The notes beneath the pieces were generated by a model. It saw nothing but the letters and a program-made list of their open reading frames with translations, made no database searches and was not told the origin of the DNA. From Methanobacteriota archaeon (GTDB lineage: Archaea; Thermoplasmatota; DTKX01; VGTL01): a stretch of DNA of 45,333 nt. Both the position numbers and the translations under genes were made by a program. Where the stretch lies: assembly GCA_016874675.1 (NCBI GenBank), contig VGTL01000018.1:1-45333 (forward strand), read 5' to 3'. Positions 1 to 45,293 of the stretch are shown piece by piece; the stretch's first letter is position 1, and the number at the start of each line of letters is the position of its first letter.

Positions 1-209
1 CGCGAGGCGCAAGGCGCAGGGCTTGAGGCACAAGGATCAAGGCGCGAGGCGCAAGGCTGGATTCTGGGGTGTGGCCCCATTCCCCTCCCCTTTTTTTCCT
101 CGCCCCTTGCGCCCCCGGAGGACCTTCGGTCCCCCTTGCCTGGGCGAGCTTCGCTCGGCTTCGGTTGCGCCCCATCCCCTCGCGCCTTGCGCCTTGCGCC
201 TTGCGCCTT
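1..209. repeat. Heptamer inverted array A (GGCGCAA family)
   Basis: The left arm (1-57) consists of variants of the 7-bp unit GGCGCAA. The right arm (about 174-209) is its reverse complement, TTGCGCC repeated. Between them is a core with short hairpins, GGACC-ttc-GGTCC near 119-131 and CGAGC-ttc-GCTCG near 145-157. The window edge cuts off whatever lies to the left. The array fills the stretch before the first gene. Open frames run through it, but they are low-complexity and I do not regard them as coding. Confidence 0.85.
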
Positions 210-252
210 AATTCAGCGTTTGTCCCATCTTTCAGTCTTTGTTCCAGAATCG

Positions 253-260
253 GCTTATAT
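253..260 (+). promoter_or_regulatory. TATA-like box for the gene starting at 295
   Basis: GCTTATAT is the only A/T-rich octamer in the GC-rich stretch between the repeat array and the start codon. It is centred about 38 nt before the ATG, which would give a leader of roughly 11 nt that contains a GGTGA Shine-Dalgarno-like sequence. Confidence 0.45.
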
Positions 261-294
261 CCCGACCGGGATAGAAACAGGCCAGGTGAAAGAA

Positions 295-1308
295 ATGGTG
301 GCCAAGAAGGGGCTGGTCGGGGTGATGGCCGCGATAGGGGCCGCGATGCTTTTCGTGGTCTCCGCGGCCGGGGCGTCTTTCGGCGGGAACGACGTGGACG
401 ATGCGGCGGTCGCGGGCTCGGCCGGCGACGAGTACGGCCTGGATGCCGTCGGGGCCGGGCCGGAGCAGCCCGGAGCAGACGGCAGGCTCCAGGGCCATGT
501 CCTGGACAACTCATCGGGCGAGGGCATCGCCGGCGCGACGGTGGTGATCATACATATACCCGAGGATGCCAGGGACGCCGACGCCTATGTCGAGAAGGTC
601 CTGTCCGTCCTCAGGAGAGCCCGGGACAGGCTCGGTGAGGGCCGGGAGACGCTCCGGGCGATGGAGCAGAGGCTCCAGGAAAAGAAGGCGGACCTCCTGG
701 AGAAGCTGGCGGCCAGGGGGATATTCATCGTCCGCACCGACGAGAACGGGAGCTTCGTCTCCAGGGCCGCCACCAATGACAACGTGATCGTGGCGGTCGC
801 CACTGGCTACCGGCCGGGCCGGCTGGCGGTGGAGGTCCCCGTGTCCGACGGTATCGCCCCGACCCTCCGGCTGGACGCCAAGCCCGGCCTCGAGGTGTAC
901 AAGCTGAAGCTCGTCTGGGGCTTTATCGACGAGATCAACCGCGAGGGCGACCTTGCGGCCTGGAACGGCTCCGCCGAGGTCTCGGACGGAACCGTGCGGC
1001 TCCTGCGCACAATCCAGTTCGAGACCGGTGGCAGGTTCGCCAACGGGTGCGACGACAAGATCTACCCGCAGAAGGAGCAAGACACCCTCTCGTGGAGGTC
1101 CTCCACGACGGTGGCGCGGGACGGCGTCGTCGTGATAATAATGGTCCCGGCCGGTTCCGGGAATCCGGCGGTCACGCTGACCGCCGGCGAGTGGAGCAAG
1201 ACCGTCCGGCTGGCGAGGCTCGAGGGCGACAGGTTCAGGATTCCCGTGGGCGACGCCGGGCACGAGGTACTCGTCGCCTGCGAGCTTTTCGACCGGCCGG
1301 CAGCGTAA
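295..1308 (+). CDS. Secreted protein with carboxypeptidase regulatory-like domain
   Basis: This 337-residue protein begins with a lysine-containing N-terminus and a hydrophobic stretch (about residues 5-25) that looks like a Sec signal peptide or anchor. From about residue 65 the segment GRLQGHVLDNSSGEGIAGATV has the pattern of a carboxypeptidase regulatory-like (CarboxypepD_reg) beta-sandwich. It is interrupted by a charged helical insertion (about residues 95-145) before the second half of the fold (TDENGSFVSRAA). The C-terminal third is beta-rich and unassigned. I chose the ATG at 295 because GGTGA lies just upstream and a TATA-like box precedes it; the frame stays open further upstream only because the repeat array has no stops. 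A hairpin and a second surface-protein gene follow 31 nt later, so the two are probably co-transcribed. No enzymatic motif is visible; a cell-surface structural role is inferred. Confidence 0.75.
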   Translation: MVAKKGLVGVMAAIGAAMLFVVSAAGASFGGNDVDDAAVAGSAGDEYGLDAVGAGPEQPGADGRLQGHVLDNSSGEGIAGATVVIIHIPEDARDADAYVEKVLSVLRRARDRLGEGRETLRAMEQRLQEKKADLLEKLAARGIFIVRTDENGSFVSRAATNDNVIVAVATGYRPGRLAVEVPVSDGIAPTLRLDAKPGLEVYKLKLVWGFIDEINREGDLAAWNGSAEVSDGTVRLLRTIQFETGGRFANGCDDKIYPQKEQDTLSWRSSTTVARDGVVVIIMVPAGSGNPAVTLTAGEWSKTVRLARLEGDRFRIPVGDAGHEVLVACELFDRPAA

Positions 1309-1311
1309 TTA

Positions 1312-1336
1312 CCCCGCAGGGCGATTTCCTGCGGGG
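1312..1336 (+). promoter_or_regulatory. Perfect hairpin in the leader of the next gene
   Basis: CCCCGCAGG and CCTGCGGGG form a perfect 9-bp stem around a 7-nt loop, between a stop codon at 1308 and the ATG at 1340. The 3' arm holds the only G-rich sequence close enough to act as a Shine-Dalgarno site (GCGGGGCG). Folding would therefore hide it. There is no T-run after the stem, so translational control or processing fits better than termination. The role is inferred. Confidence 0.55.
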
Positions 1337-1339
1337 CGA

Positions 1340-3964: not shown

Positions 3965-3973
3965 TCGGGAGGG

Positions 3974-5068
3974 ATGACCACCATGGCCCTCCTTTCCGGC
4001 CTTTGGCGGCGGCTTGGGCCGCACCTCGTCGAGCGGAGGCTGGCGCCGGCGCTCCCGGTCCTCTTCCTGGCGATGTCGGTCTGGGTGCTCTCGACGCCCT
4101 ACGACCCGGGGACGGACCTTGCGGACGCCACCACGAACGACATCTGGTCTGGCCTCATTCGGGAGGGGAGGCACGCCATCCCGCTCTCCGAATGGAAGGA
4201 GCGCGGGTACCCGCCGACGCAGAGCTCGGTGGTGTCGCTGGACGGCGAATACCAGGTCGTCAACGAGAAGGGACCGGCGCACGCCCTGCTGGTCGCCGCC
4301 CTCGACTCCTTCGGCGCCGGCACACTGACCGGGACGCTTTGCGCCGCGCTGGCGCTCGCGCTCGTGCCCTTCATGGTCGGGCTCCTGGTCGTGCTCGCGC
4401 CGCCGATGCAGTACAACGCCACCTACTTCGGAGGGCCCCTGCGCTCCGGCTACGACGCCACCTCGCTTCTGGACTTCTCGAGGACCGGAGAGCTCACCGA
4501 GCGCAACCAGTCCGTCCAGTGGAGCGCCGACTGGTCCGAGGGAGCGGGGAACGTCTGGAGCAACTCGTTCGTCCTGGCCCCGATAATATTCCTGAGGATG
4601 CCCCTGCTGATACTGGTCCCGGCCGCGAATTACCTCAAGGAGGCGGCCGACGGCCGCCTGCTGACGCCCGGCGGCCCCCGGGGCCCGCCCGGACAGCCGG
4701 ACGGCCAGCCACCGGGGACCGGCCCGCCCGGCTCCACAGGGCCCCCGGGCCCGGAGTTCAGGACGGTGGCCCTCGCCGAGCTCCTGGGCTCTCCCGAGGC
4801 GTACGCCGGCCAGTTCGTCCGGGTGGAGAACCTGACCGTCTCGGAGGTCGCCTGGCCGCTCGTGAACCTCTCGGGACCGGGGGGCTTCATCACGGCCCGC
4901 CTGGACAACTTCACCTCGCCGCCGGCGGCGGCCCGGCCGGGCGCGCTGGTCGACGCGCAGGGCCCGTGGAACGGCCGGGACCGAAACGGCAACGGCCGGG
5001 CGGACCCGGGCGAGTTCGTGTTCAATGTCAAGAATGGTACGACCGACAGGCTGGAGGAGGCTGGTTGA
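3974..5068 (+). CDS. Membrane protein with collagen-like linker and extracellular OB-like domain
   Basis: This 364-residue protein looks chimeric. The N-terminal 220 residues hold three hydrophobic segments (about 23-42, 113-143 and 194-219). The loop after the first, with LDGEYQVVNEKGPAHALL, resembles the first loop of GT39/PMT-like membrane glycosyltransferases, but the rest of such an enzyme is missing. Residues about 233-260 are a Gly-Pro-rich linker with GPPG repeats, like collagen. The last 100 residues, beginning FRTVALAELLGSPEAYAGQF, are beta-rich with the spacing of a small OB-fold and end in an acidic DRNGNGRADPGE loop. GGGAGGG precedes two possible in-frame starts (3974 and 3983). 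The stop codon touches the ATG of the next gene, so translation is probably coupled. Function unknown. Confidence 0.7.
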   Translation: MTTMALLSGLWRRLGPHLVERRLAPALPVLFLAMSVWVLSTPYDPGTDLADATTNDIWSGLIREGRHAIPLSEWKERGYPPTQSSVVSLDGEYQVVNEKGPAHALLVAALDSFGAGTLTGTLCAALALALVPFMVGLLVVLAPPMQYNATYFGGPLRSGYDATSLLDFSRTGELTERNQSVQWSADWSEGAGNVWSNSFVLAPIIFLRMPLLILVPAANYLKEAADGRLLTPGGPRGPPGQPDGQPPGTGPPGSTGPPGPEFRTVALAELLGSPEAYAGQFVRVENLTVSEVAWPLVNLSGPGGFITARLDNFTSPPAAARPGALVDAQGPWNGRDRNGNGRADPGEFVFNVKNGTTDRLEEAG

Positions 5069-5338: not shown

Positions 5339-5385
5339 GGACGGCGCGGGAGGAAACGGAGCAAGAGAGCGGTGGCTGGTGAAGG

Positions 5386-5916
5386 ATGGACGCCGGGGAG
5401 CACCTGGACCTGGAGAACAGAAGGCGCGTGTTCGTGCGCGTGCGCTCCCACCCCGGGGAGCACCTGCGCGAGCTCCAGCGCGCCCTGGAGATGCCCATGG
5501 GGCTCCTGAACCACCACCTCAACTACCTGGAGGAGCGCGGGATAATCTCGTCGCGCATGGACCGCTACTACAAGCGCTACTACCCCTCGGAGATGGGGGC
5601 GCGGGAGAAGACCTACCTCTCGGCGCTGCGCCAGGAGAGGCCCCGATCGATCGTGCTCCATCTCGTGCTCAACCCGGGCAGCTCCCACCGCGCGCTTCTG
5701 GAGAATTTCGGGCTGAGCCCCTCCACGCTCTCGTTCTACCTCCGGGACCTGGAGGCCAAGGGCGTGGTGATCCGGGAGCGGTCAGGCCGCGAGAGCCTCT
5801 ACTCGGTGGGGCCGGTTGACGAGGTCGTGCGCATACTGATAACCCACCGCCCGAGCTTCCTGGACACGGTCGTGGACCGGTTCCTCGAGGTCTGGTTCGA
5901 GAAGAAAGGGACGTAA
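5386..5916 (+). CDS. Two-domain winged-helix transcriptional regulator
   Basis: This 176-residue protein contains two consecutive winged-helix domains. The first (about residues 10-70) shows HPGEHLRELQRALEMPMGLL followed by HHLNYLEERGIISS, the recognition helix and wing. The second (about 85-145) shows NPGSSHRALLENFGLSPSTL and FYLRDLEAKGVVIRER. This tandem ArsR/MarR-like arrangement is common in euryarchaeal regulators. No metal-binding cysteines are present. GGTGAAGG precedes the ATG. The gene is the last of the plus-strand run and faces a minus-strand gene across a short repeat hairpin. The likely targets are the neighbouring membrane and surface genes; that is inferred from position only. 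Confidence 0.85.
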   Translation: MDAGEHLDLENRRRVFVRVRSHPGEHLRELQRALEMPMGLLNHHLNYLEERGIISSRMDRYYKRYYPSEMGAREKTYLSALRQERPRSIVLHLVLNPGSSHRALLENFGLSPSTLSFYLRDLEAKGVVIRERSGRESLYSVGPVDEVVRILITHRPSFLDTVVDRFLEVWFEKKGT

Positions 5917-5918
5917 TC

Positions 5919-5993
5919 GAGGCAAGGGGAACGGGTCAAGGGGCACGGGTCAAGGGACGGGAAAGCATCGTCGTCCCCTTGCCCCCTTGTCCG
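5919..5993. repeat. Short inverted repeat element B between convergent genes
   Basis: GGCAAGG and GGTCAAGG units on the left (to about 5961) face CCTTGCCCCCTTGTCC on the right, around a CATCGTCGTCCCC core. The stems lie 4 nt after one stop and 12 nt before the other, so the element could end transcription from both sides. It resembles the larger arrays in this window in layout and in its core. Confidence 0.6.
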
Positions 5994-6349: not shown

Positions 6350-6357
6350 TTAATAAA
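6350..6357 (-). promoter_or_regulatory. TATA-like box for the gene starting at 6325
   Basis: On the minus strand this reads TTTATTAA, centred 28 nt from the start codon, the usual archaeal distance for a leaderless transcript. It sits a few nt outside the large repeat array. Confidence 0.6.
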
Positions 6358-6360
6358 TGA

Positions 6361-6668
6361 GAAGGGCAGCAAGGCAGCAAGGGAGCAAGGCAGGAAGGGA
6401 AGGGAAGAAGGCAGCAAGGGAAGGGAAGAAGGCAGCAAGGGAGCAAGGCAGCAAGGGAGCAAGGCAGCAAGGGAGCAAGGCAGCAAGGGAGCAAGGCAGC
6501 AAGGGAGCAAGGCAGCAAGGGGACGACGGTTCGTTCCATACCCCCTGCTGCCTTTCTGCCCTGCTGCCTTGCTGCCTTCCCTTGCTGCCTTTCTGCCTTG
6601 CTGCCTTGCTGCCTTCCCTTGCTGCCTTCCTGCCTTCCTGCCTTCCTGCCTTCCTGCCTTCCTGCCTC
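6361..6668. repeat. Octamer inverted array C with shared core
   Basis: The left arm (about 6361-6518) is a run of 8-bp units GGCAGCAA and GGGAGCAA with some GGGAAGAA variants. The core near 6519-6545 contains GGGGACGACGGTTCGTTCC. The right arm (about 6546-6668) repeats TTGCTGCC and TTCCTGCC. The whole can fold into a hairpin of roughly 300 nt. It fills the gap between two minus-strand genes and begins 20 nt after the stop codon of the subtilisin gene. The frames through it are open but low-complexity and not coding. Confidence 0.92.
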
Positions 6669-6687
6669 TAAATGTCGTAGAAATGCA

Positions 6688-11128: not shown

Positions 11129-11181
11129 TGGCAGGGTGCGGGGTGCGGGGACGAGCTCGGGATGCGGGGTGCAGGGTGCGG
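11129..11181. repeat. Half array M of GGTGCGG units
   Basis: GGCAGGGTGCGGGGTGCGG is followed by GGGATGCGGGGTGCAGGGTGCGG, giving about six copies of a 7-bp GGTGCGG unit. It abuts the stop codon of the symporter gene with one nt between. Only one arm is present, so it cannot fold back on itself as the others do. The layout suggests it belongs to the same class of element. Confidence 0.6.
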
Positions 11182-13357: not shown

Positions 13358-15319
13358 TCAGGCACCCCCCGTCGTCCCCTGCTGCCCCGTCCCCTTGCTG
13401 CCTTCCTGCCTTCCTGCCATGCTGCCCTGCGTGGATTGTATGGCTCCCAGCGGGCAGAGCTTGGCGCACTTCATGCACCCGTCGCACAGGGCGGGGTCTA
13501 TCGAAGCCTGGCGGTCGGCGTCCAGCGATATGGACGGGCAGTGGAAGTCCCGCACGCAGGTATAGGCGCGCTTGCAGACCTGCTTGTCCACCTTGTTGGG
13601 CACGATCTTTTCGCCCTTGCGCCGCTTGTTGCGGTCGCCGTAGAGCGCGCAGTCGCGCCTCGATATTATCACCCCGACCCCCGGCCGGGCGAGCGCCTCC
13701 TTGATCTGGCCCGGGGTGTCCTTTATCTGATACGGGTCTATGACCGTTACATCGGCCACGCCCAGTCCCTTCACGAGCGCGTCAAGGTCTATCCTCTGCT
13801 GGGCCGCGTCATCCTCCTCATGGGGCGAGGCCGGGTTGTGCTGCTGGCCCGTCATCGCCGTCACGGCGTTGTCCAGGAGGACCAGCTTGAAGTCCGCCCT
13901 CTGGTGGACGGCGTTGACCAGCCCGGGAATCCCGGCGTGGAGGAACGTGGAGTCGCCTATCATCGCCACCACAGGCTCCTCGACCGAGCGCCGGAGGCCC
14001 TCTGCGACCCCGAGGGAGGCGCCCATGCTGAGCAGCGTGTCTCCGTACCTGAGCGGCTCGAGCGGGGCCATCGAGTAGCAGCCGATGTCCGTGGCGAGGA
14101 CGTGCTTGACGCCCCGGAGCGCCTTCCTGAGGGCGTGTATGGTGCCGCGGTGCGGGCAGCCGGGACAGAAGGTCGGCGGCCGGTTGGGCAAACCCTCCTT
14201 GAGCCGCTTGGCCCTCTCGAGCACGCCGGCGTAGTCCACGGGCGTCGGCAGGCCCAGCACCTTGCCCAGCACGGTGGCCACGATGTTGGGGTTGTATTCA
14301 AGCGCCTCGGAGAAGAGGCCGGGGCCCTTTCCCGCTATTTCTAGCTTGGGGTTGACGTCCTTCGCCAGGGCCCTGATGTTCTGCTCGAGGTAGGGCGAAA
14401 GCTCCTCGACCACGATGACCCTCCTGAGGCCTTCGATGAATCCAAAAATCAGCCTGCGGGGCAGGGGGAACGTGGTCCCCAGCTTGAGTATGGGCAGGTC
14501 GAGCCCCATCAACCGGCAGGCCTCCACCGCGTAGTTGTAGCCGGCCGAGGAGGCGACGATTCCAGTGCCTTCGAACCGCTTCCCACCCGGAACGACGTCC
14601 TTCCGGATGCGGTTGAAGGGCGAGGACTCGAACTCCTTCTCGAGCGCCGCGGTGCGCCCGAGCATCCCGGCCTTGAACGCCCGGGCCCGGTCCGCCACCG
14701 TTATGAACCGCGTGGGCTCGTGGGGCCAGGGGACCTTCTTGAACGGGGTGCGCCCAAGCTCCCCGAGCTCGACGATGCCGCTCTGGTGGTTGACGCGCGT
14801 GACCGTCCTGACGAGCACCTGGACGCCGTGCCTCTCCGAGAGGTCGAAGGCGGCCTTCACCATGTCCTTGGCCTCCTGGGGGTCGGAGGGCTCGAGCATG
14901 GGCACGTAAGCCGCCGGGCCGAAGAAGCGGCCGTCCTGCTCAGACTGGGACGAGTGGGCGTGCGGGTCATCGGCCATGGCGATGACCATCCCGCCCTTGA
15001 CGCCCGTGTAGGCGAGCGAGAAGTAGGAGTCGCAGGCGACGTTCATCCCGACGCTCTTCATGGAGGTCATGGAGCGCAACCCGGCCATGGCGGCGCCGGC
15101 GGCCGTCTCGAGGGCCACCTTCTCGTTGGAGGAGACCTCCGCCACGAGGTCCATCTGCCTGCCTGTCTCGGCGAATGCGTCCAGTATCTCGCTGGTCGGG
15201 GAGCCCGGATAGGCGGCGAATAGCTTAACGTCGGCCTCCAGCGCGCCCCGCACCATCGCCTCGTTGGCCATCATGAACGCCCTGCCGGGCCCTTTCGATG
15301 TTATATCCTCGTTGCTCAA
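13358..15319 (-). CDS. iorA: Indolepyruvate:ferredoxin oxidoreductase, alpha subunit
   Basis: This 653-residue subunit carries the pyrimidine-binding region (AYPGSPTSEI near residue 40), the family motif CPGCPHRG (about 385) and the thiamine diphosphate motif GDSTFLHAG followed by LDNAVTAMTGQQ (about 455-495). It ends in a ferredoxin-like region. There the second cluster motif is complete (CDGCMKCAKLCP). The first reads CKRAYTCVRDFHCP, with alanine where the family normally has the second cysteine, so it may hold a 3Fe cluster or none. I chose the TTG at 15319 because GGGAGG stands seven nt upstream and the preceding frame is repeat sequence. The last 20 or so residues (from GSMAGRQEGSKG) are encoded by a half repeat element. 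The protein works with IorB in aromatic amino acid catabolism in the cytoplasm. Confidence 0.94.
   Translation of the reverse strand: MSNEDITSKGPGRAFMMANEAMVRGALEADVKLFAAYPGSPTSEILDAFAETGRQMDLVAEVSSNEKVALETAAGAAMAGLRSMTSMKSVGMNVACDSYFSLAYTGVKGGMVIAMADDPHAHSSQSEQDGRFFGPAAYVPMLEPSDPQEAKDMVKAAFDLSERHGVQVLVRTVTRVNHQSGIVELGELGRTPFKKVPWPHEPTRFITVADRARAFKAGMLGRTAALEKEFESSPFNRIRKDVVPGGKRFEGTGIVASSAGYNYAVEACRLMGLDLPILKLGTTFPLPRRLIFGFIEGLRRVIVVEELSPYLEQNIRALAKDVNPKLEIAGKGPGLFSEALEYNPNIVATVLGKVLGLPTPVDYAGVLERAKRLKEGLPNRPPTFCPGCPHRGTIHALRKALRGVKHVLATDIGCYSMAPLEPLRYGDTLLSMGASLGVAEGLRRSVEEPVVAMIGDSTFLHAGIPGLVNAVHQRADFKLVLLDNAVTAMTGQQHNPASPHEEDDAAQQRIDLDALVKGLGVADVTVIDPYQIKDTPGQIKEALARPGVGVIISRRDCALYGDRNKRRKGEKIVPNKVDKQVCKRAYTCVRDFHCPSISLDADRQASIDPALCDGCMKCAKLCPLGAIQSTQGSMAGRQEGSKGTGQQGTTGGA
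13372..13436. repeat. Half array D inside the 3' end of iorA
   Basis: CCGTCGTCCCCTGCTGCC is followed by CCTTGCTGCC and CTTCCTGCC units, matching the right arm and core of the octamer elements. There is no opposite arm. The array is read in frame as the C-terminus of IorA and stops at the iorB start region. Confidence 0.85.
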
Positions 15320-15372: not shown

Positions 15373-15401
15373 TTTGCGCAAATGGGATGCATACAGAAAA
15401 A

Positions 15402-15583
15402 AGGCGCAAGGCGCATGGCGCATGGCGCGAGGCCGAAGGGGCGAGGGGAAAGGGGCAAGGGGCGGAAGAACGAGCTCGCCCCCTTGACCCTTGCGCCTTG
15501 ACCCCTGCGCCCTCGGCCTTGCGCCTTGCGCCCTGCGCCCTGCGCCTTGCGCCATGCGCCATGCGCCCTGCGCCTTGCGCCAT
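15402..15583. repeat. Heptamer inverted array E between divergent genes
   Basis: The left arm begins GGCGCAAGGCGCATGGCGC and continues to about 15465. The core includes GAACGAGCTCGCCCC. The right arm (about 15481-15583) is a run of TTGCGCC variants including CTTGACCC. It lies between the divergent iorA and metallo-beta-lactamase genes and fills most of their 347-bp gap. It cannot be a terminator for either of them. Confidence 0.9.
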
Positions 15584-15666
15584 GATCGGGACGCGGTTCG
15601 AAATACCCCAACATTCCATGAAAAGATTGAAATCCAGTTTCGTCATGATGTCGGGACGGTGGGAAC

Positions 15667-16833: not shown

Positions 16834-17265
16834 ATGCCGTTGAAGAAAGCGTCGAAGGAACTGATGGATATGTTGAACATGGCCATCGCCCGGGAGATAC
16901 AGGTCTCCATCCAGTACATGTGGCAGCACGTGCTCTGGGGGGGCGTCAAGGGGTTCGCCACAAAGGACGCCTTCAAGGAGATCGCCATCGAGGAGATGAA
17001 GCACGCCGAGAAGATCGCCGAGCGGCTCTACTACCTGGGCGGGACCCCGACCACGAAGCCCACGCCCATAGTGGTCGGCCAAAATCTCAAGGAGCGCATC
17101 GAGCAGGACATCAAGGACGAGCAGGGCGCAATCGAGATGTACACCAGGATAATCGAGCTGGCGCGCAAGGAGGGCGACGAGGTCACCAACCTCATGTTCC
17201 GCCACATCCTCGAGGACGAGGAAGACCACCACGACACCTTCACGACGCTGTACGAGGAAGTGTGA
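16834..17265 (+). CDS. Ferritin-like di-iron protein
   Basis: This 143-residue four-helix protein belongs to the ferritin/bacterioferritin superfamily. Expected metal ligands are seen in order: a glutamate in helix 1 (AREIQVSIQYMWQHV), ExxH in helix 2 (EEMKHAEKIAERL), a glutamate in helix 3 (KDEQGAIEMYTRII) and ExxH in helix 4 (LEDEEDHHDTFTTLY). Members oxidise ferrous iron and either store it or detoxify peroxide. The length is close to that of small bacterioferritin-like or Dps-like archaeal proteins. I chose the ATG at 16834 because GGGGAGGAG lies five nt upstream; an ATG at 16798 has no such signal. The persulfide dioxygenase-like gene upstream suggests a shared redox or sulfur stress role. 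Confidence 0.88.
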   Translation: MPLKKASKELMDMLNMAIAREIQVSIQYMWQHVLWGGVKGFATKDAFKEIAIEEMKHAEKIAERLYYLGGTPTTKPTPIVVGQNLKERIEQDIKDEQGAIEMYTRIIELARKEGDEVTNLMFRHILEDEEDHHDTFTTLYEEV

Positions 17266-17274
17266 GGGAAGAAG

Positions 17275-17466
17275 GAGCAAGGCGCGTGGCGCAGGGCGCA
17301 GGGCCGAAGGCGCAAGGCGGAAGGCACAAGGGGAAGGTGGTCCGAATCTCAGTTTTCTCCCCCTTGACCCTTGCGCCTCGACCCCTGCGCTCTCGGCCTT
17401 GCGCCTTGCGCCTTGACCCCTGCGCCCTCGGCCTTGCGCCTTGCGCCTTGCGCCCTGCGCCTTTGC
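17275..17466. repeat. Heptamer inverted array F
   Basis: The left arm (17275-17336) is a run of GGCGCAG, GGCGCAA and GGCGGAA units. A core near 17337-17362 follows, and the right arm (about 17363-17466) repeats TTGCGCC with CTTGACCC variants. It starts about 10 nt after the stop codon of the ferritin-like gene and ends 4 nt before the next start codon, leaving no room for a promoter outside the array. Confidence 0.92.
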
Positions 17467-17470
17467 ATCC

Positions 17471-26649: not shown

Positions 26650-26722
26650 TGGGCTCATCCGGATTTGAACCGGAGATCTCCTCCGTGTCAGGGAGGTGTC
26701 ATACCAACTAGACCATGAGCCC
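26650..26722 (-). tRNA. tRNA-Val (anticodon GAC)
   Basis: The minus strand folds into a standard 73-nt tRNA: acceptor GGGCTCA pairs with TGAGCCC and is followed by discriminator A. The D arm holds GGTCTAGTTGGTATGACA, the anticodon stem is CCTCC with GGAGG, and the loop CTGACAC gives anticodon GAC. The T arm CCGG-TTCAAAT-CCGG is canonical. CCA is not encoded, as is common in archaea. No intron is present. It reads away from the receptor-like gene on the plus strand. Confidence 0.97.
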
Positions 26723-26812
26723 AGTCCGTTCTTCTCAGAAGGAGATAAAAGTACCCATTAAAATCATTTTCGGGGGGATGCGGGGTGAAAAGAGGCGCAG
26801 GATGCGTGGGGG

Positions 26813-26979
26813 AAAGGCAGCAAGGCAGCAGGGCAGCAAGGCAGCAAGGGAAGGCAGCAAGGCAGAAAGGCAGAAAGGCAGCAGGGGGTATGGAACGAAC
26901 CGTCGTCCCCTTGCTGCCTTGCTGCCTTGCTCCCTTGCTGCCTTGCTCCCTTGCTGCCTTCCTCCCTGCGCCCTGCGCA
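26813..26979. repeat. Octamer inverted array G with inverted core
   Basis: The left arm repeats GGCAGCAA and GGCAGAAA units. The core near 26885-26912 reads GGGGGTATGGAACGAACC then GTCGTCCCC, the reverse complement of the core of the array at 6361-6668. The right arm repeats TTGCTGCC and TTGCTCCC to about 26970. It lies between the divergent tRNA-Val and receptor-like genes. Confidence 0.92.
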
Positions 26980-27010
26980 TTCCCTTATCTATTTTCCGCC
27001 GCCTCCGCCC

Positions 27011-33722: not shown

Positions 33723-33747
33723 ACGCCGTGAACGCCTCGCGATCGGG

Positions 33748-33990
33748 GAAAGGCAGCAAGGGAGCAAGGCAGCAAGGGAGCAAGGCAGCAAGGCAGCAAG
33801 GCAGCAAGGGAGCAAGGGACGATGGGAAACGCAGGGGGGAACGGGGCCTGCGTCCCTTGCTGCCTTGCTGCCTTGCTGCCTTGCTGCCTTGCTGCCTTGC
33901 TGCCTTCCTGCCTTCCCATGCTGCCCTGCTGCCCTGCTGCCTTCCTGCCTTCCCATGCTGCCCTGCTGCCTTTCTGCCTTCCTGCCTTCG
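33748..33990. repeat. Octamer inverted array H
   Basis: The left arm (about 33748-33818) is GGCAGCAA and GGGAGCAA units. The core holds GGGACGATGGGAAACGCAGG. The right arm (about 33852-33990) repeats TTGCTGCC and TTCCTGCC with ATGCTGCC variants. It begins 26 nt after the ATPase stop codon and, with the promoter that follows, fills the gap of about 430 bp before the next gene. No gene is seen in the gap. Confidence 0.92.
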
Positions 33991-34057
33991 CGGCTCCCTT
34001 TTCCCACTGCCTGCTGCCCATGCCCGCTCGCTGAGCTCCTCCCCCACTCTCAAACTT

Positions 34058-36553: not shown

Positions 36554-36559
36554 TTGGGC

Positions 36560-36912
36560 GAAGGCAGGAAGGCAGCAAGGCAGAAAGGCAGCAAGGGACG
36601 GGAGGAAGGCAGGACCGTAGAAGACCGCTGCAGCGGTCTTCTCGGCCGAGGCGAGCGAAGCTCGCCTACGGAGGCAGCAAGGGAGCTAGGGATTGCCGTC
36701 GTCCCTCCCTGCCCTGCTGCCTTCCTGCCCCCCTTGCTGCCTTCCCTTGCTGCCTTGCTGCCTTCCCTTGCTGCCTTGCTGCCTTCCCTTGCTGCCCTCC
36801 CTTGCTGCCTTTCTGCCTTTCTGCCTTGCTGCCCTCCCTTGCTGCCTTTCTGCCTTTCTGCCTTGCTGCCATCCCCTTCCTGCCTTCCTGCCTTGCTGCC
36901 TTGCTGCCTTCT
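36560..36912. repeat. Octamer inverted array I with nested palindromes
   Basis: The left arm (36560-36613) is GGCAGGAA and GGCAGCAA units. The middle (36615-36671) holds a cloverleaf-like set of palindromes. A short GGCAGCAAGGGAGC run and GCCGTCGTCCC follow. The right arm (about 36703-36912) is a long run of TTGCTGCC, TTCCTGCC and TTTCTGCC units. It begins 7 nt after the stop of the coiled-coil gene and fills most of the gap of about 430 bp to the lipoprotein gene. No gene is seen in it. Confidence 0.92.
36615..36671. other. Nested palindromes forming a possible cruciform
   Basis: An outer stem CCGTAG with CTACGG encloses three hairpin-forming pieces. These are a 22-bp perfect palindrome at 36620-36641 centred on CTGCAG, the 10-bp palindrome CTCGGCCGAG at 36641-36650, and GCGAGC-gaa-GCTCGC at 36651-36665. 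The set sits within the octamer array and could form a cruciform in DNA or a branched RNA. Confidence 0.7.
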
Positions 36913-36928
36913 CACCAACAATGCCAAC

Positions 36929-40383: not shown

Positions 40384-40393
40384 ATATTTATAA
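40384..40393 (+). promoter_or_regulatory. TATA box deciding the start of the acidic zinc-ribbon gene
   Basis: ATATTTATAA is centred 35 nt before the ATG at 40424. Transcription would start near 40416, downstream of another in-frame ATG at 40397, so the later ATG is the likely start. Confidence 0.65.
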
Positions 40394-40423
40394 GCCATGA
40401 ATAGGATATGGCCCTCGATAGTT

Positions 40424-41458
40424 ATGCCTGAAGAAGAAGAGGCCTTTGAATGCCCCCAGTGCGGGGCCAGCGTGGGCGTCGATGACACCAAATGCCCCGA
40501 GTGCGGGGTCGAGTTCGAGACCGAGGAGGAGGCCGCGCCCCGCGAGCCGTCCGCCCGCGTAAAAGCGCCGTCCCCCCCGGCGGCCAAGGAGGAAGCCGAG
40601 GAGGAGGAAGAAGAGGAAGACGAGGAGGAGGCGGAGGACGAGGAGGAAGGCGAGGAGGAGGAAGAGGAGGAAGACGAGGAGGAGGCGGAGGACGAGGAAG
40701 AAGGCGAGGAGGAGGCGGAGGACGAGGAGGAAGGCGAGGAGGAGGCGGAGGACGAGGGAGAAGGCGAGGAGGAGGCGGAGGACGAGGAAGAAGGCGAGGA
40801 GGAGGAGGAACCGGAGCCCCCGGAGCTGCCGGAGGCGCAGAAAGCCGGCCTCAACATCGGCGGCGTTGTCATAGCGATCCTGGGTGTGCTGGGCCTCGTC
40901 GGTGCCGTCCTGCTGGACCCGATTCTCAATATAATGGACGACAAGCACCCGGCCGACATCGTGATCGGCCCCACCCAGATGATGATCCTGGTCGTGGCCC
41001 TCATCGTCCTGGCCCTGGGCGTCGTGGTGGCCTTCGTCTGGCGCAAGAAGCCCGCCTCGGCCGGACAGGCGGCACCCGCTCCCCTCGCAGGCGAACCCCG
41101 GGCTCCGGCCATGGATGCCGGACCCGAGGAGGGCGAGGAAGAGGAGGGGGAAGAGGGCGAGGAAGCGGCTGAGGAGGAAGAAGGGGACGAGGAGGAGGAG
41201 CAGGAAAAGAAGGTTGCCGCTCCAGCCAGGCCCCCCGAGCCGCCCGCCCCGGCCGAGAAGGAGGAGGCGGAAGAGGCCGGAGAGGAGGCCGGGGAGGAAA
41301 AGGAGAAGGAAGAGGAGGAGGAGGACGACGAGGAGGCAGCGGAAGAGGAGGCCGGGCAAAAGGGGGGCGAGGCCGTCGAGTACGAGTGCCCCGCCTGCGG
41401 CGCCGCGGTCGGAGAGACGGACACCAAGTGCAAGAACTGCGGGGCGGAGTTCGAGTAG
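40424..41458 (+). CDS. Acidic membrane protein with a zinc ribbon at each end
   Basis: This 344-residue protein is nearly symmetrical. Residues 1-30 form a zinc ribbon (FECPQCGASVGVDDTKCPECG) and the last 30 form another (YECPACGAAVGETDTKCKNCG). Each is followed or preceded by a long run of Glu and Asp (about 55-130 and 230-310) built of imperfect EEEAEDEEEG repeats. The middle has two membrane helices (about 142-165 and 183-205) joined by a short DKHPADIVIGP loop, so both zinc ribbons would face the cytoplasm. Such zinc ribbons often bind protein partners in archaea. The acidic runs are encoded by a low-complexity GAGGAGGAGG-type tract that may vary in length. No function is known. Confidence 0.8.
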   Translation: MPEEEEAFECPQCGASVGVDDTKCPECGVEFETEEEAAPREPSARVKAPSPPAAKEEAEEEEEEEDEEEAEDEEEGEEEEEEEDEEEAEDEEEGEEEAEDEEEGEEEAEDEGEGEEEAEDEEEGEEEEEPEPPELPEAQKAGLNIGGVVIAILGVLGLVGAVLLDPILNIMDDKHPADIVIGPTQMMILVVALIVLALGVVVAFVWRKKPASAGQAAPAPLAGEPRAPAMDAGPEEGEEEEGEEGEEAAEEEEGDEEEEQEKKVAAPARPPEPPAPAEKEEAEEAGEEAGEEKEKEEEEEDDEEAAEEEAGQKGGEAVEYECPACGAAVGETDTKCKNCGAEFE

Positions 41459-41468
41459 GGGAAAATTA

Positions 41469-41680
41469 GGGCGCAAGGCGCAAGGCGCAAGGCGCAAGGC
41501 TTAGGGCGCAAGGGTTGAGGCACAAGGGGCAAGGAGGAGATTGCACTTCATCGTTCCTCCATGCCGTGTCTTGTCCCGCACCCCATTTCCATTGTCCCTT
41601 GACTCATCGGCCCTGGCGCATTCATCCCTTGTGCCTTGCGCCTTGCGCCTTCGTCCCTTGCGCCCTGCGCCTTGCGCCTT
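41469..41680. repeat. Heptamer inverted array J between convergent genes
   Basis: The left arm (41469-41536) starts with five units of GGCGCAA and continues with GGCACAA variants. The core of about 60 bp is not repetitive. The right arm (about 41595-41680) repeats TTGCGCC and TTGTGCC. It lies 11 nt after one stop and 8 nt before the other stop on the opposite strand, so it fills the whole convergent gap. Confidence 0.92.
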
Positions 41681-41687
41681 CTTCTTT

Positions 41688-42647
41688 TCATTCCAGCGGC
41701 TCGGCGTCGATGCCCAGCCGGGAGCGGATCTCGGCCGCCAGGGCCTCGCAGGAGCCGTGGACTGTGTAGACCTTCCGGGGCGAGCAGCGCTCCACGAAAT
41801 CCATTATCCGGTTGAAGTCGCAGTGGTTGCTGAACGGGAACTGGACGTCAATGTCGTGGGAGTTGCCGTAGTTCATGAACGCCGTCCAGCCCGAAACGAA
41901 CGCCGCTGCCGCGCCCTTTCTCCGGTACCGGCCGATGTGCTCGGGGACCGGGTGCTTGAGCTCCCTGCGCGAGGTCACGAGCACGTGGGGGGAACCTAGG
42001 AGGACATCCCCGGCCCGCGAGAGGGGCGTGCAGTCCTGCGTCACGCCGTGCCTGCGGTACACGTCGCAGATCGCCCCTATCCTGTCCGGGACCACCACGG
42101 GCGCCCGTATGCTGTTGGCCAGCGCGACGAGGTCCTGGGCCTTGCCGAACTCGTAGCTGCCCAGTATGACGGAGCCCTCCTCGAGCCCCGATTCCATCCA
42201 GGAGAGAAGGTCGGACACCACGCCCTCCTGGTCCGGGAGCACGAATCGCGGCGAGCCGTAGGTGGCCTCTATCACCAGGGTGTCGCACTTGCGGGGCGCG
42301 GCGGCGCCGCAGGTGATGCCGGTGAAGGTGTTGAAATCGCCGGTATACAAGGTGTCGTCGGCCTTGACCATCGCCGAGCCCAGGACGTGGCCCGCCTCGC
42401 TGAGTTCCACCTCGAAGCCACCAACCGCGCTCCTGCCGTCGAGGGGCACGACCCGGGCCGGGAAGTCCTCCCGGCCGGAGCGGGCCACCATTATGTCCCG
42501 CGTCTGGGGCGTCATGACGGCCCCCTCGACCATGTGGTCCAGGTGGGCGTGGGTGACGATCGCCTGGGGCCGGCGGCGCTTGGGGTCGAGGTAGAGCCTC
42601 TCCGGGCCCTTCTCGAGGCAGACCGCCCCGTCCCAGAGGACCTTCAT
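41688..42647 (-). CDS. Metallo-beta-lactamase nuclease-like protein (beta-CASP type)
   Basis: This 319-residue protein has the metallo-beta-lactamase metal motif THAHLDH (His33, His35, Asp37, His38), GHVLGSAM and YTGDFN. Its C-terminal part has PFSNHCDFNRI and YTVHGSCEALA, which match the FSxHxD and terminal histidine motifs of beta-CASP nucleases (CPSF73, Artemis, SNM1 and related archaeal proteins). These enzymes cut RNA or DNA; for this short one the substrate is unknown, and a DNA-repair exonuclease or RNA processing factor is possible. The ATG at 42647 overlaps the stop of the upstream zinc-ribbon gene (ATGA), so the two are translated together. The frame is open further upstream only because of the overlapping gene. 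Confidence 0.88.
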   Translation of the reverse strand: MKVLWDGAVCLEKGPERLYLDPKRRRPQAIVTHAHLDHMVEGAVMTPQTRDIMVARSGREDFPARVVPLDGRSAVGGFEVELSEAGHVLGSAMVKADDTLYTGDFNTFTGITCGAAAPRKCDTLVIEATYGSPRFVLPDQEGVVSDLLSWMESGLEEGSVILGSYEFGKAQDLVALANSIRAPVVVPDRIGAICDVYRRHGVTQDCTPLSRAGDVLLGSPHVLVTSRRELKHPVPEHIGRYRRKGAAAAFVSGWTAFMNYGNSHDIDVQFPFSNHCDFNRIMDFVERCSPRKVYTVHGSCEALAAEIRSRLGIDAEPLE

Positions 42648-43039
42648 CGGTCCCTCCTCGTGAAGGTGTACCTGGTCGGTTCCTTGCGCTTGACCGTGGT
42701 CCTGAAGGGGCAGGCGGGGCACCGGAACCCAAGCGTCACGGTGCCGCCGAAGACGGTCTCGTTCCGGGTCGGGCGGAGCGGGCTTCCGCACACGGGGCAC
42801 TTGAAGCGGGCGGTCCTCTTGTCCGTGTCCCTCCACTGTATTTCCACGTGGGCGAGCCCGGTGGTTATCGCGAGCCGCCTTATCCTCTCGGGGCTGGCCG
42901 TGAGACCCGGGTCGGTCCTCTTGAGCTCCTTTAGGACCTTCTCCCGGAGCTCCCGCTGGGAGCAAATGGTCTTCCGGCTGCCCAGGGCGCGCCTCAAGGC
43001 CTCTACCAGCGTCTCCTCGTCGGCGAGCTTCCAGCCCAT
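42644..43039 (-). CDS. Zinc-ribbon protein with helical N-terminal domain
   Basis: This 131-residue protein has an N-terminal region of about 70 residues with a winged-helix-like pattern (LVEALRRALGSRKTICSQRELREKV, then SPERIRRLAITTGLAHVEIQW). A zinc ribbon follows (CPVCGSPLRPTRNETVFGG then FRCPACPF) with a basic tail. This would suit nucleic acid binding. The gene overlaps the start of the beta-CASP-like nuclease by four nt, so it may present substrate to it. A TATA-like TTTTTATAGT lies 27 nt before the ATG at 43039, so the message is probably leaderless. An ATG at 43102 is in the same frame but is upstream of that box. Confidence 0.8.
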   Translation of the reverse strand: MGWKLADEETLVEALRRALGSRKTICSQRELREKVLKELKRTDPGLTASPERIRRLAITTGLAHVEIQWRDTDKRTARFKCPVCGSPLRPTRNETVFGGTVTLGFRCPACPFRTTVKRKEPTRYTFTRRDR

Positions 43040-43060
43040 CACGCGGGATATCGGGATGCA

Positions 43061-43070
43061 ACTATAAAAA
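43061..43070 (-). promoter_or_regulatory. TATA box of the zinc-ribbon/nuclease pair
   Basis: The minus strand reads TTTTTATAGT, centred 27 nt from the ATG at 43039. It shows that the pair has its own leaderless transcript and rules out the longer upstream start. Confidence 0.65.
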
Positions 43071-43075
43071 ATGGG

Positions 43076-43173
43076 GGAAGGGGAGCAGGGAGCGGGAGGC
43101 AAGGGCAGCGGGCAGTATTGGGCGAAGGGGTCCGTTCAATAACCGCTGCCTGCTGCCCGCTGCCCGCTCCCCG
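43076..43173. repeat. Short inverted array K (GGGCAGC units) between divergent genes
   Basis: The left arm (about 43076-43117) contains GGGGAGCAGGGAGCGGGAGG and GGGCAGCGGGCAG. The right arm (about 43144-43172) reads CTGCCTGCTGCCCGCTGCCC and GCTCCCC. The core is TATTGGGCGAAGGGG followed by TCCGTTCAATA, itself partly self-complementary (TATTG, CAATA). It lies between two divergent promoters. Confidence 0.8.
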
Positions 43174-43187
43174 GTGCAACAAAGCAT

Positions 43188-43200
43188 TAAAAATATATAC
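43188..43200 (+). promoter_or_regulatory. TATA box of etfBA
   Basis: TAAAAATATATAC is centred about 39 nt before the TTG start. The short leader contains GAGGTG (43222-43227), five nt before that start codon. Confidence 0.6.
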
Positions 43201-43232
43201 GCTCGTGCGTTTCCCAGCGGCGAGGTGGGAAA

Positions 43233-44024
43233 TTGGTGGAAACGGTCGTGGTGGCGAAGGTGACCGTCGATGTCCAGGCCGTCAAGATGGACGCGGACAC
43301 GAGCGAGCCCATCCTCAAGGGCGTCCCGTTGAAGGTGAGCGACTTCGACAAGAACGCGATGGAGGAGGCCCTGAGGACAAAGGCCAAGCTCGGGGGCAAG
43401 GTACGGGTCGTGACAGCCGGTCCGCCCGAGGCCAGGGACAAGCTGCGCGAGCTCATCGCCATGGGCGCCGAGGAGGCCTATCTCGTAACGGACGCCCGGT
43501 TCTCCGAGCTCGACTATGCCGCCGTCGGCAAGCTGCTGGCGGCCGCCATAAGGAAGCTGGGCAAGATCGACCTCGTCTTGGCGGGCGAGGCCTCCATCGA
43601 CCAGTACTCCGGCCAGATGGGCCCGCGCCTGGCCGGTGCCCTGGGCGTTCCGAGCGTCTCGTACGTCCGAAAGCTCACGCCCGACAAGGAAGGGCTGGTG
43701 GCCGAGCGCGAGATGGGGGACCTCGTCGAGGAGTACCGTTTGCCCTATCCCGCCCTGGTCACGCTCACAAAGGAGATCAACGAGCCGCGCCTTCCGAACA
43801 TGATGCAGATCATCGGCGCCTCCAAGAAGCCGATAACCGAGTGGCGGGCCGATACCCTGGGGGTCGCCCCCGCCGAGCTTGAGCCCGCGGTCCGGCTCGC
43901 CGGGCTGCGGGGCATCGTGATGAAGCGTCGCAACGTGCTCTTCGCCGACGAGCCGCCCGAGGCGGCCCGGAAGCTGGTCGAGGCCCTTAGAGGCGAGGGC
44001 GTGCTGGGGGGCGGGCAGAAATGA
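43233..44024 (+). CDS. etfB: Electron transfer flavoprotein, beta subunit
   Basis: This 263-residue protein is the small ETF subunit. It has the family's N-terminal KVTVDVQAVKMDADTSEPIL, the region DFDKNAMEEALRTKAKLGG, and AGEASIDQYSGQMGPRLAGALGVP, which matches the ETF-beta signature around the adenine nucleotide site. With EtfA it forms a soluble heterodimer that takes electrons from dehydrogenases, often of acyl-CoA or amino acid derived substrates, and passes them to quinone- or ferredoxin-linked acceptors. I chose the TTG at 43233, preceded at five nt by GAGGTG; the GTG right after it is an alternative. The stop overlaps the etfA start (ATGA), so the two are translated together. No dehydrogenase or ETF:quinone oxidoreductase gene is present in the window. 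Confidence 0.94.
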   Translation: MVETVVVAKVTVDVQAVKMDADTSEPILKGVPLKVSDFDKNAMEEALRTKAKLGGKVRVVTAGPPEARDKLRELIAMGAEEAYLVTDARFSELDYAAVGKLLAAAIRKLGKIDLVLAGEASIDQYSGQMGPRLAGALGVPSVSYVRKLTPDKEGLVAEREMGDLVEEYRLPYPALVTLTKEINEPRLPNMMQIIGASKKPITEWRADTLGVAPAELEPAVRLAGLRGIVMKRRNVLFADEPPEAARKLVEALRGEGVLGGGQK

Positions 44025-44980
44025 CCGTGCTCGTCTTCTCCGAGCAGGTCCCGACCGGAAACGAGCTCCTGGCGAAGGCGCGGGAGATGGCGCCCGTTCT
44101 CGGTGGCCAGGTCATCGCGCTCGCCTACCCGGGGAGCCCCGGTCCGGAGGGCTTCTACAAGCGCGGCGCGGACCGGGTCATCGTCCCGGAGAGCCCCCAT
44201 CTCGCCGGCGATGTCCCGCTCGCCGAGAACTACTCCGCGATCCTCCACCAGCTATGCGAGGAGCACAAGCCGTCGGTCGTACTGGTGGGCTCCACCCGGT
44301 GGGGAAAGGAGGTGGCGGCCCGCCTGGCCGGCCTGCTCGGGTGCGGCTGCGCCCTGGACTGCACCTCCGTGAGCCTGGACGCCGGAAAGACGCTCACGGT
44401 CGAGAGGCTGGTCCTGGGCGGCAACGCCATGTCCTCCGAGCAGATGGCCAAGCTCCCGGCGGTGCTCACGGTCCCGGCCAAGGTGATACCCTGCCTCCCG
44501 GAAGCGGCCTCCCCGGGCGGGCAGGTGGAGCGCAAGAGTTTCGAACTGGCCCCGCCCAGGGCGGCCTCCCTCAAGGTAACGCCCCGGGAGGTCTCCGGGG
44601 TCAAGCTGGACACCGCCCAGGTGGTGGTCTCGATGGGCCGGGGCGTCAAGGCCAAGGAGGACATCCGAATCATCTCGGAGCTGGCGAGGGCGCTCAACGG
44701 CGAGCTGGGCTGCACCCGGCCCATCGCCGCCGACCTCAAGTGGCTTCCAAAGGAGCACTGGGTGGGCCTCTCCGGGACCAAGGTCAAGCCCCGGGTCTAC
44801 GTCGCGGTCGGCATATCCGGCCAGATACAGCACATCGCCGGCATGAGGGACTCGGCGCTCATCGTGGCCATCAACAAGGACAAGGACGCCCCGATCTTCA
44901 AGGCCGCCGACTTCGGGATAATCGGGGACCTCTACAAGGTCGTGCCCGAGATCATGAACCAGCTGAAGACCTGCAAGTGA
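44021..44980 (+). CDS. etfA: Electron transfer flavoprotein, alpha subunit
   Basis: This 319-residue subunit has an N-terminal nucleotide-binding-like domain and the C-terminal FAD domain. The FAD domain shows TRPIAADLKWLPKEHWVGLSG, VYVAVGISGQIQHIAGM and INKDKDAPIFKAADFGIIGD, the standard flavin-contact stretches. Thr stands where many family members have Ser in the SRP motif, a mild change. There is no N-terminal ferredoxin domain, unlike some archaeal EtfA proteins. Whether this ETF bifurcates electrons cannot be judged from these motifs alone. The gene overlaps etfB by four nt, and an octamer repeat array starts four nt after its stop codon. Confidence 0.95.
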   Translation: MTVLVFSEQVPTGNELLAKAREMAPVLGGQVIALAYPGSPGPEGFYKRGADRVIVPESPHLAGDVPLAENYSAILHQLCEEHKPSVVLVGSTRWGKEVAARLAGLLGCGCALDCTSVSLDAGKTLTVERLVLGGNAMSSEQMAKLPAVLTVPAKVIPCLPEAASPGGQVERKSFELAPPRAASLKVTPREVSGVKLDTAQVVVSMGRGVKAKEDIRIISELARALNGELGCTRPIAADLKWLPKEHWVGLSGTKVKPRVYVAVGISGQIQHIAGMRDSALIVAINKDKDAPIFKAADFGIIGDLYKVVPEIMNQLKTCK

Positions 44981-44983
44981 GGG

Positions 44984-45293
44984 AAAGGCAGGAAGGGAGG
45001 GATAGGCAGCGGGCAGCAGTGGGGTAGAAAGGGAGCAGGCAGCAGGGCAGCAAGGCAGCAGGGCAGCAAGGGAGGGGGGAAGGCAGCAAGGCAGCAGGGC
45101 AGCAAGGGAGGGGGGAAGGCAGCAAGGCAGCAAGGCAGCAGGGCAGCAAGGGAGCAAGGGGACGACCGGTCGTTCCTTTTCCCCTGCTGCCTTGCTCCCT
45201 TGCTGCCCTGCTGCCTTGCTGCCCTGCTCCCTTCCCTTGCTGCCTTGCTCCCTTGCTGCCTTCCCTTGTTCCCTTCCTGCCTTGCTGCCTTGC
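44984..45293. repeat. Octamer inverted array L
   Basis: The left arm (about 44984-45158) mixes GGCAGCAA, GGGAGGGGGG and GGCAGCGG units. The core reads GGGGACGACCGGTCGTTCC, with the perfect 12-bp palindrome ACGACCGGTCGT. The right arm (about 45180-45292) repeats TTGCTGCC and TTGCTCCC. It begins four nt after the etfA stop and fills the window's right end. No gene is seen after it. Confidence 0.9.

What the first reader, a model, noticed from the sequence alone, without database searches (positions are those of the whole stretch)
1..45293. A class of giant inverted arrays fills at least thirteen intergenic gaps
Thirteen gaps (near 1, 5919, 6361, 11129, 13372, 15402, 17275, 26813, 33748, 36560, 41469, 43076 and 44984) carry runs of short units on one side and, in eleven of them, the reverse complement on the other, around a core. 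Two unit types dominate: a 7-mer GGCGCAA and an 8-mer GGCAGCAA; minor types use GGTGCGG or GGGCAGC. In every two-armed copy the GGC...CAA arm comes first and the TTG...GCC arm second, so each strand gives the same hairpin polarity. Such a dense family with two period lengths does not match REP/BIME, CRISPR or a transposon that I know. It could be a termination, RNA-stability or chromosome-organising element.
Basis: partly seen in the sequence, partly recalled or inferred. Interest (0 to 1): 0.9.

Follow-up and report, generated by a model that had tools for sequence, protein, structure and literature searches.

The report
Paired G-rich repeat arrays between genes
This archaeal genome carries many facing pairs of short G-rich repeat runs between its genes, a dense relative of repeats known from a few bacteria, probably spread by copying; what they do for the cell, if anything, is open.

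Summary
All thirteen arrays are in the window: eleven two-armed, two one-armed. They belong to a genome-wide family in an archaeal draft genome (16S). In 845 kb of it, 172 of 594 gene gaps carry arrays; the order is G-rich arm then reverse-complement arm in 98 gaps, the opposite in 1, mixed in 4, one-armed in 69. A held-out 400 kb gives 41 to 0. 291 other sampled genomes of the phylum have one stray hit. Both arms use the same unit vocabulary in 83 of 91 elements, but unit order fits no better than between strangers. The unit's GG never varies (0 of 210 changes). A core GGACGAC recurs across vocabularies. Some elements are relatives of each other with different unit numbers; no target-site duplications were found. 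Arrays abut stop codons, keep off start codons and occur in divergent gaps, so they are not simply terminators. Best reading: a lineage-specific, mobile-like, slipping family of convergent G-rich arrays. The closest published kind is the GGGAATC heptamer arrays of Xanthomonas, which include convergent inverted pairs (PMC4692102). New variant of a known kind.

The parts
1..246 (.). two-armed 7-mer element at the contig start; hairpin-like insert inside the second arm
5899..5992 (.). small two-armed element (CAAGGGG-type units), core read on minus strand GGGGACGACG, between convergent genes
6354..6673 (.). two-armed 8-mer element, core GGGGACGACGGTTCGTTCC at 6519-6537; relative of 26771-26997 in inverse orientation (92-93% over 154-162 bp)
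11129..11181 (+). one-armed GGTGCGG/GGGTGCG array
13362..13431 (-). one-armed 8-mer array inside the 3' end of a gene (POR_N/TPP/4Fe-4S oxidoreductase subunit, called 13358-15274 minus), translated as its C-terminal tail
15376..15584 (.). two-armed 7-mer element between divergent genes; closest partner is 17253-17468
17253..17468 (.). two-armed 7-mer element overlapping the stop codon of the gene before it (16834-17265)
26771..26997 (.). two-armed 8-mer element with a few 7-mer-like units at its outer edges (by eye); next to a tRNA gene (26650-26722 minus)
33744..34049 (.). two-armed 8-mer element
36556..36915 (.). two-armed 8-mer element with a REP-like double hairpin (36614-36671) inside
41456..41695 (.). 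two-armed 7-mer element filling the gap between convergent genes
43065..43173 (.). two-armed GGGCAGC-type element between divergent genes
44972..45305 (.). two-armed 8-mer element at the contig end, core GGGGACGACCGGTCGTTCC at 45158-45176

Best explanation
A lineage-specific, genome-wide family of intergenic elements. Each is two facing arrays of 7- or 8-bp G-rich units around a short core, with the G strand running from each flank inward. Shown here: the fixed order, the shared vocabulary of the two arms, the invariant GG, the recurring core, close relatives at different loci, a modest excess of nearby relatives, different unit numbers between relatives, and location outside most coding sequence and away from start codons. 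Inferred: the family spreads by copying from locus to locus without target-site duplication (gene conversion, template switching or an unidentified transposition), and its arms grow and shrink by slippage. It is tolerated wherever no gene or promoter is broken, like BIMEs or foldback elements. In RNA or single-stranded DNA it is predicted to fold into long hairpins, which may influence 3' ends as a side effect. The invariant GG implies that something reads or enforces the G tracts: the copying enzyme, a protein, or a G-tract structure.
For: Order 98 PY to 1 YP, 4 mixed; held-out 41 to 0, 2 mixed. Same vocabulary in both arms in 83 of 91. Core GGACGAC in 33 of 96 cores against 1.4 expected, across arm types. 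Relatives: window 6353 and 26770 at 93% over 154 bp including the non-palindromic core; L113 10571 and 17950 share core and boundary phrases, with equal 7-mer counts but 33 against 9 8-mers in one arm and 4 against 8 in the other; a 187-bp segment at 96% in L056 and L063. Best partner on the same contig in 15 of 96 (core +/-60 bp, p 0.0005) or 12 of 96 (core +/-12 bp, p 0.011), against 5.1 expected. Median distance 7 bp to stop codons (48 sides) and 83.5 bp to start codons (42 sides) in 445 kb; with the other detector -3 and 70 and, held out, -4 and 51. Arrays over stop codons 44, over start codons 3. Not found as arrays in relatives. Predicted folding: median z -8.15, 40 of 98 elements, 12 shuffles each.
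Against: No mobility enzyme is tied to the arrays: one IS200-like Y1 transposase, a second one in two pieces, and a reverse transcriptase with a group II intron maturase domain. No empty site could be compared: only one adjacent gene pair is shared with the relatives sampled, and genes there were called with a model not fitted to them. A neutral slipping repeat should mutate its GG; it does not. Many 88-90% matches between 8-mer arms may follow from the small vocabulary alone; the core-spanning ones are the strong ones. Neighbouring elements do not share vocabulary more than chance (30 of 132 against 28.2).
Confidence: 0.55

Rival explanations
1. Break healing: double-strand breaks between genes had G-rich repeats added to both 3' ends, telomere-like, and the two ends were then joined. 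This gives G-strand-inward arrays on both sides with independent order and length.
For: Fixed polarity. Same vocabulary without matched order. Variation limited to certain unit positions with GG invariant. Canonical 7-mers concentrated outside (0.59 against 0.29, 63 arms); 7-mers outside 8-mers in 4 of 5 mixed arms, though these four belong to two elements that are relatives; the L113 pair is layered the same way. One-armed arrays of both kinds. No target-site duplications. Telomeric repeats are inserted during break repair in primates and rodents (PMC7215372, abstract).
Against: Shared complex cores at different loci should not arise at independent junctions. No gradient in 8-mer arms (0.31 against 0.39, p 0.20). 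No telomerase-like enzyme is known in archaea (recalled); the only RVT_1 match is a group II intron type. Arm lengths are correlated (rho 0.42).
Confidence: 0.13
2. Bidirectional 3'-end elements: hairpins that end or protect transcripts of the flanking genes.
For: Arrays abut or overlap stop codons; arrayed convergent gaps are filled nearly end to end (median residual 13 bp in 12 gaps); strong predicted hairpins on both strands; 42 of 97 convergent gaps carry arrays.
Against: 32 of 95 divergent gaps carry arrays and 55 of 97 convergent gaps do not. T runs after stop codons are rare with or without arrays, so that test decides nothing. Not found in the relatives searched.
Confidence: 0.13
3. 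Rehm-type G-rich simple repeats: each arm arose on its own by slippage and is kept for G-tract (quadruplex-like) structure; no mobility.
For: Invariant GG; G-extending changes are common at the flanking positions. Four GG tracts in 272 of 297 arms and four GGG tracts in 103 of 297; four GGG tracts never on the other strand of an arm. The Xanthomonas precedent has the same polarity.
Against: Relatives with shared cores. Two arms of one element share vocabulary. Most arms lack four GGG tracts; array-free gaps of 60 bp or more also have four GG tracts on one strand or the other in 133 of 170, and GGG in 22 of 170.
Confidence: 0.12
4. Chromosome-organising binding sites for a protein that reads GG every 7-8 bp or the GGACGAC core.
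For: Invariant GG at fixed spacing, recurring core, occurrence over many contigs.
Against: No candidate protein was found or sought; array length is highly variable; absent from the nearest relative held.
Confidence: 0.06
5. Assembly artefact.
For: 10 of 27 contig starts lie in arrays.
Against: 172 arrayed gaps lie between called genes inside contigs.
Confidence: 0.01

Closest known systems
GGGAATC / GGGGA(C/T)T heptamer arrays of Xanthomonas and Nostoc (Rehm et al. 2015, PMC4692102; abstract, passages, sections 10, 13 and 16 seen)
   Same: G-rich short units, intergenic, conserved G tract with variation at certain positions, variable unit number, inverted pairs in convergent orientation (70 and 75 cases in two Xanthomonas), close to or overlapping stop codons, G strand mostly pointing away from the nearer gene.
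   Different: Here an archaeon, two main periods and at least five vocabularies, long arms, a recurring core, composites with 7-mers outside 8-mers, whole elements related between loci, not rare in divergent gaps, mostly GG rather than GGG. Not filed as a member.
REP/BIME and GTAG/CGTC palindromes (PMC3733652; abstract and passages seen)
   Same: High-copy intergenic palindromic repeats, lineage-specific, near gene 3' ends.
   Different: REPs are 20-40 bp with an unpaired tag; here arms are tandem arrays of 7-8 bp units. This genome also has separate REP-like hairpins.
Foldback transposons, e.g. Tetris (PMC4079207; abstract seen)
   Same: Long inverted arms holding tandem repeats, dispersed copies.
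   Different: No target-site duplication found, no transposase tied to it, units far shorter (about 220 bp in Tetris).
Interstitial telomeric repeats (PMC7215372; abstract seen)
   Same: Short G-rich repeats inside chromosomes; the head-to-head form with G strands inward is known at fused ends (recalled).
   Different: Eukaryotic, one vocabulary, telomerase present; here cores are shared between loci.

Membership tests
Rehm-type G-rich heptamer arrays | G tract conserved in the unit | tested here: met
   GG hit by 0 of 85 (8-mer) and 0 of 125 (7-mer) locus-level changes; 2 of 265 and 15 of 195 middle units with more than 2 mismatches were left out
Rehm-type G-rich heptamer arrays | inverted pairs in convergent orientation | tested here: met
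   98 PY, 1 YP
Rehm-type G-rich heptamer arrays | close to or overlapping stop codons | tested here: met
   median 7 bp to stops; 44 over stops, 3 over starts
Rehm-type G-rich heptamer arrays | GGG tracts able to form quadruplexes, preference for four units | tested here: not met
   four GGG tracts in 103 of 297 arms; median arm 83 bp; unit-number preference itself not counted
Rehm-type G-rich heptamer arrays | under-represented between divergent genes (7-8% of repeats in Xanthomonas) | tested here: not met
   32 of 172 arrays lie in divergent gaps, which are 95 of 594 gaps
REP/BIME | 20-40 bp single hairpin with unpaired GTAG or CGTC tag | tested here: not met
   arms are tandem 7-8 bp units; CGTC in the core lies within the palindrome
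REP/BIME | tyrosine transposase gene flanked by the repeat | tested here: not met
   beside the one intact Y1 transposase (L088) only two 3-unit chains were found; further copies in the unassembled part cannot be excluded
MITE / foldback transposon | target-site duplication | tested here: not met
   own flanks share 4.31 bp on average against 4.49 +/- 0.10 shuffled; 0 of 98 share 8 bp or more
MITE / foldback transposon | fixed outer ends | not tested
   edges were read by eye only
Transcription terminator | found after genes, not between divergent starts | tested here: not met
   32 of 95 divergent gaps carry arrays
Transcription terminator | RNA 3' ends at the element | not testable with these tools
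   no RNA data
CRISPR | repeats separated by unique spacers | tested here: not met
   units are head to tail without spacers

The most novel reading that the evidence does not exclude
An archaeon adds telomere-like G-rich repeats to both 3' ends of chromosome breaks and then joins them, so its gene gaps are filled with head-to-head, telomere-fusion-like scars. The Xanthomonas arrays, with the same polarity, could have the same origin. A later layer of gene conversion would have spread some cores.
Probability: 0.1. Interest if true: 0.93.

Novelty: new variant of a known kind. Interest (0 to 1): 0.62.

Why it matters
172 of 594 sampled gaps carry a repeat with near-strict polarity and an invariant GG; array spans make up 3.5% of one sample and 4.5% of the other. 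Its closest published relative, in unrelated bacteria, has the same polarity and also no known function (PMC4692102). A shared rule in two domains points to a common way such arrays are made or kept, and makes that question testable by comparing sister genomes.

Tried and rejected
Terminators by T runs: T5 or more within 120 bp after the stop in 3 of 44 and 4 of 59 arrayed ends against 3 of 16 and 4 of 51 array-free ends (convergent, tandem); too few to decide. Orthologous empty sites: one shared adjacent gene pair only. Target-site duplications: none. Own-arm pairing above family level: mean ranks 0.52, 0.49, 0.44 and 0.33 for four groups of 34, 37, 14 and 6 elements; in the first sample 6 of 51 rank first, about 2 expected: L048 12043, L053 2230, L054 2695, L061 10022, L065 19175, L066 19738. 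Polarity rule for one-armed arrays alone (G strand away from the nearer gene): 41 of 69 follow it, p = 0.15; convergent 13 of 15, tandem 25 of 45, divergent 3 of 9. Neighbours sharing vocabulary: no. A viral source: 16 viral contigs with one match each; the detector shows chains of 4-6 units in them. The reversed-pattern control (17 against 30) is not fair, because the core pattern read backwards itself resembles an array. One search tallied one-armed arrays with a coding slip; one search replaces that tally. Score 30 alone is loose: over all sequence, genes included, the reversed control gives 110 segments against 173 real ones, and 20 against 102 at score 60; gap counts use intergenic segments only.

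Rows dropped: 2 of 98 cores longer than 80 bp; 7 of 98 elements with an arm under 35 bp; 4 of 172 elements over 700 bp; 26 of 172 arrays without assignable vocabulary; 58 of 98 elements not folded; unit layering and gradient used the first 445 kb only.

Papers: PMC4692102 abstract, passages and sections 10, 13, 16; PMC3733652 abstract and passages; PMC4079207 and PMC7215372 abstracts; PMC12306157 passages; others search listings only. Searches for an earlier report of this family; none of the rows listed is one, but the lists were cut (e.g. 15 of 57, 15 of 275) and the library holds open-licence papers only.
Full report
What was checked. The window is the whole of contig C18 (45333 bp) of a 3.36 Mb, 189-contig draft genome with an archaeal 16S gene (1506.7 bits to the archaeal model). 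No tool named the lineage; from archaeal-type domains and recall I suspect a GC-rich Thermoplasmatota-like archaeon.

How widespread. AAGGCAGCAAGGCAGCAAGG occurs 450 times in this genome and in 0 of 59 relatives; the 7-mer trio AAGGCGCAAGGCGCAAGGCGC 82 times and in 0 of 59. A shorter 8-mer pair occurs 501 times here and once in 1 of 291 other sampled genomes of the phylum. Tandem repeats cover 2.67% of the 445 kb sampled here against 0.63%, 0.30% and 0.63% in samples of G001 (same family), G002 and G003/G004 (same class). The nearest relative held is another genus, so closer kin could not be examined.

Anatomy. I called genes with a codon model and scored arms with a 5-mer model trained on 445 kb, then applied both unchanged to a further 400 kb. 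In both together, 172 of 594 gaps carry arrays: PY 98, P 35, Y 34, PYP 2, YP 1, YPY 1, PYPY 1, where P is the G-rich arm and Y its reverse complement. Scaled linearly, the genome would hold about 680 arrayed gaps and 400 two-armed elements. Vocabularies: AAGGCGC, AAGGCAGC, GGGCAGC, GGGTGC and AAGGGGC/AAGGGTC types; 26 of 172 arrays fit none. Both arms share the vocabulary in 83 of 91 elements, yet the order of units in one arm fits its own partner no better than a stranger's (mean ranks 0.52, 0.49, 0.44 and 0.33 in four groups, the last of 6 elements), with a few well-matched exceptions. In 7-mer arms canonical units sit outside (0.59 in the outer half, 0.29 in the inner half, p = 8e-7); 8-mer arms show no gradient (0.31, 0.39, p = 0.20). 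Five arms mix 7- and 8-mers; in four, from two related elements, the 7-mers are outside.

Unit variation. Looking at any unit between near-canonical neighbours, changes fall on particular positions. The GG is never hit: 0 of 85 locus-level changes for the 8-mer, 0 of 125 for the 7-mer. Related elements make these events partly dependent, so the binomial p-values (2e-11 and 5e-19) overstate the case, but the complete absence stands. Changes beside the GG favour G: 14 of 15 and 44 of 55 at position 2, 21 of 21 and 12 of 17 at position 5. T makes up 3.8% of the G-rich strand in 232 strong arms.

Core. GGACGAC is in 33 of 96 cores against 1.4 expected and occurs with the 8-mer, the GGGCAGC and the AAGGGTC vocabularies. 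Several 7-mer elements share another core that reads like GGGAACGACCGTGGATTCC.

Relations between loci. Some elements are relatives of each other. Window 6353 and 26770 match at 93% over 154 bp through a non-palindromic core, and the match ends within the elements. L113 10571 and 17950 share core and boundary phrases and have equal 7-mer counts, but 33 against 9 8-mers in one arm and 4 against 8 in the other. L056 and L063 share 187 bp at 96%, running about 40 bp past the array. The best partner of a core lies on the same contig for 15 of 96 (core +/-60 bp, p 0.0005) or 12 of 96 (core +/-12 bp, p 0.011), against 5.1 expected. No target-site duplication was found.

Place in the genome. In 445 kb, two-armed elements lie a median 7 bp from stop codons and 83.5 bp from start codons; the second detector gives -3 and 70 and, held out, -4 and 51. 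Arrays overlap 44 stop codons and 3 start codons. The space kept before start codons is read as promoter by inference; a mild A+T rise at -35 to -30 is seen with and without arrays. Occupancy is 42 of 97 convergent, 32 of 95 divergent and 98 of 402 tandem gaps. The array at 13362-13431 is read as the last residues of an oxidoreductase subunit. One-armed arrays in tandem gaps are G-rich in sense in 29 and antisense in 16 (p = 0.07).

Folding. RNA of either strand is predicted to fold far below shuffles in the 40 elements tested (median z -8.15; 95% of folds below -3). This follows from the facing arms and does not by itself show function.

Reading. Shared cores, close relatives at different loci and an excess of nearby best partners speak for spread by copying, and differing unit number for slippage. 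Fixed polarity then follows from common descent. What neutral copying does not explain is the invariant GG. The break-healing model explains polarity, vocabulary without order, layering and one-armed forms, but not shared cores. Termination is weakened by the divergent gaps.

Known relatives. Rehm et al. (PMC4692102) described G-rich heptamer arrays in Xanthomonas and Nostoc, with a conserved G tract, close to stop codons, G strand mostly pointing away from the nearer gene, and 70 and 75 inverted pairs in convergent orientation in two Xanthomonas. They assigned no function. The present family meets three of five features tested for that kind and fails two (GGG tracts in most arms; under-representation in divergent gaps). 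It is like them in geometry but differs in vocabularies, arm length, core and copying: a new variant of a known kind, not filed as a member.

Noticed in passing
window 36614-36671 and 22 genome sites of GGCGAGCNNNGCTCGCC: A separate family of REP-like double hairpins, some with CCGTAG/CTACGG ends; 7 of 8 copies in the 845 kb lie within 60 bp of an array segment. In L113 one of two related arrays has it and the other does not.
   Followed up: partly
L062 7356 onward (contig C5): A long gap holding a Y1 transposase in two pieces and many hairpins, flanked by array arms.
   Followed up: no
L129 1093-2337 minus (contig C8): A 414-aa reverse transcriptase with a group II intron maturase domain, the only RVT_1 match in the genome.
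   Followed up: partly
L056 4391-4580 and L063 17304-17520: A 187-bp segment at 96% identity that runs about 40 bp beyond the array, ending near TTCCTACTAGGAA; a possible recent copy event.
   Followed up: no
window 40397-41458: A protein with a zinc-ribbon-like start (by eye) and long acidic repeats coded by GAG/GAA-rich tandem repeats, unrelated to the arrays.
   Followed up: no
L049 6902, L061 10067, L112 11683, L112 17060: Further arrays inside called gene 3' ends, G-rich strand in sense; some may be gene-call errors.
   Followed up: no
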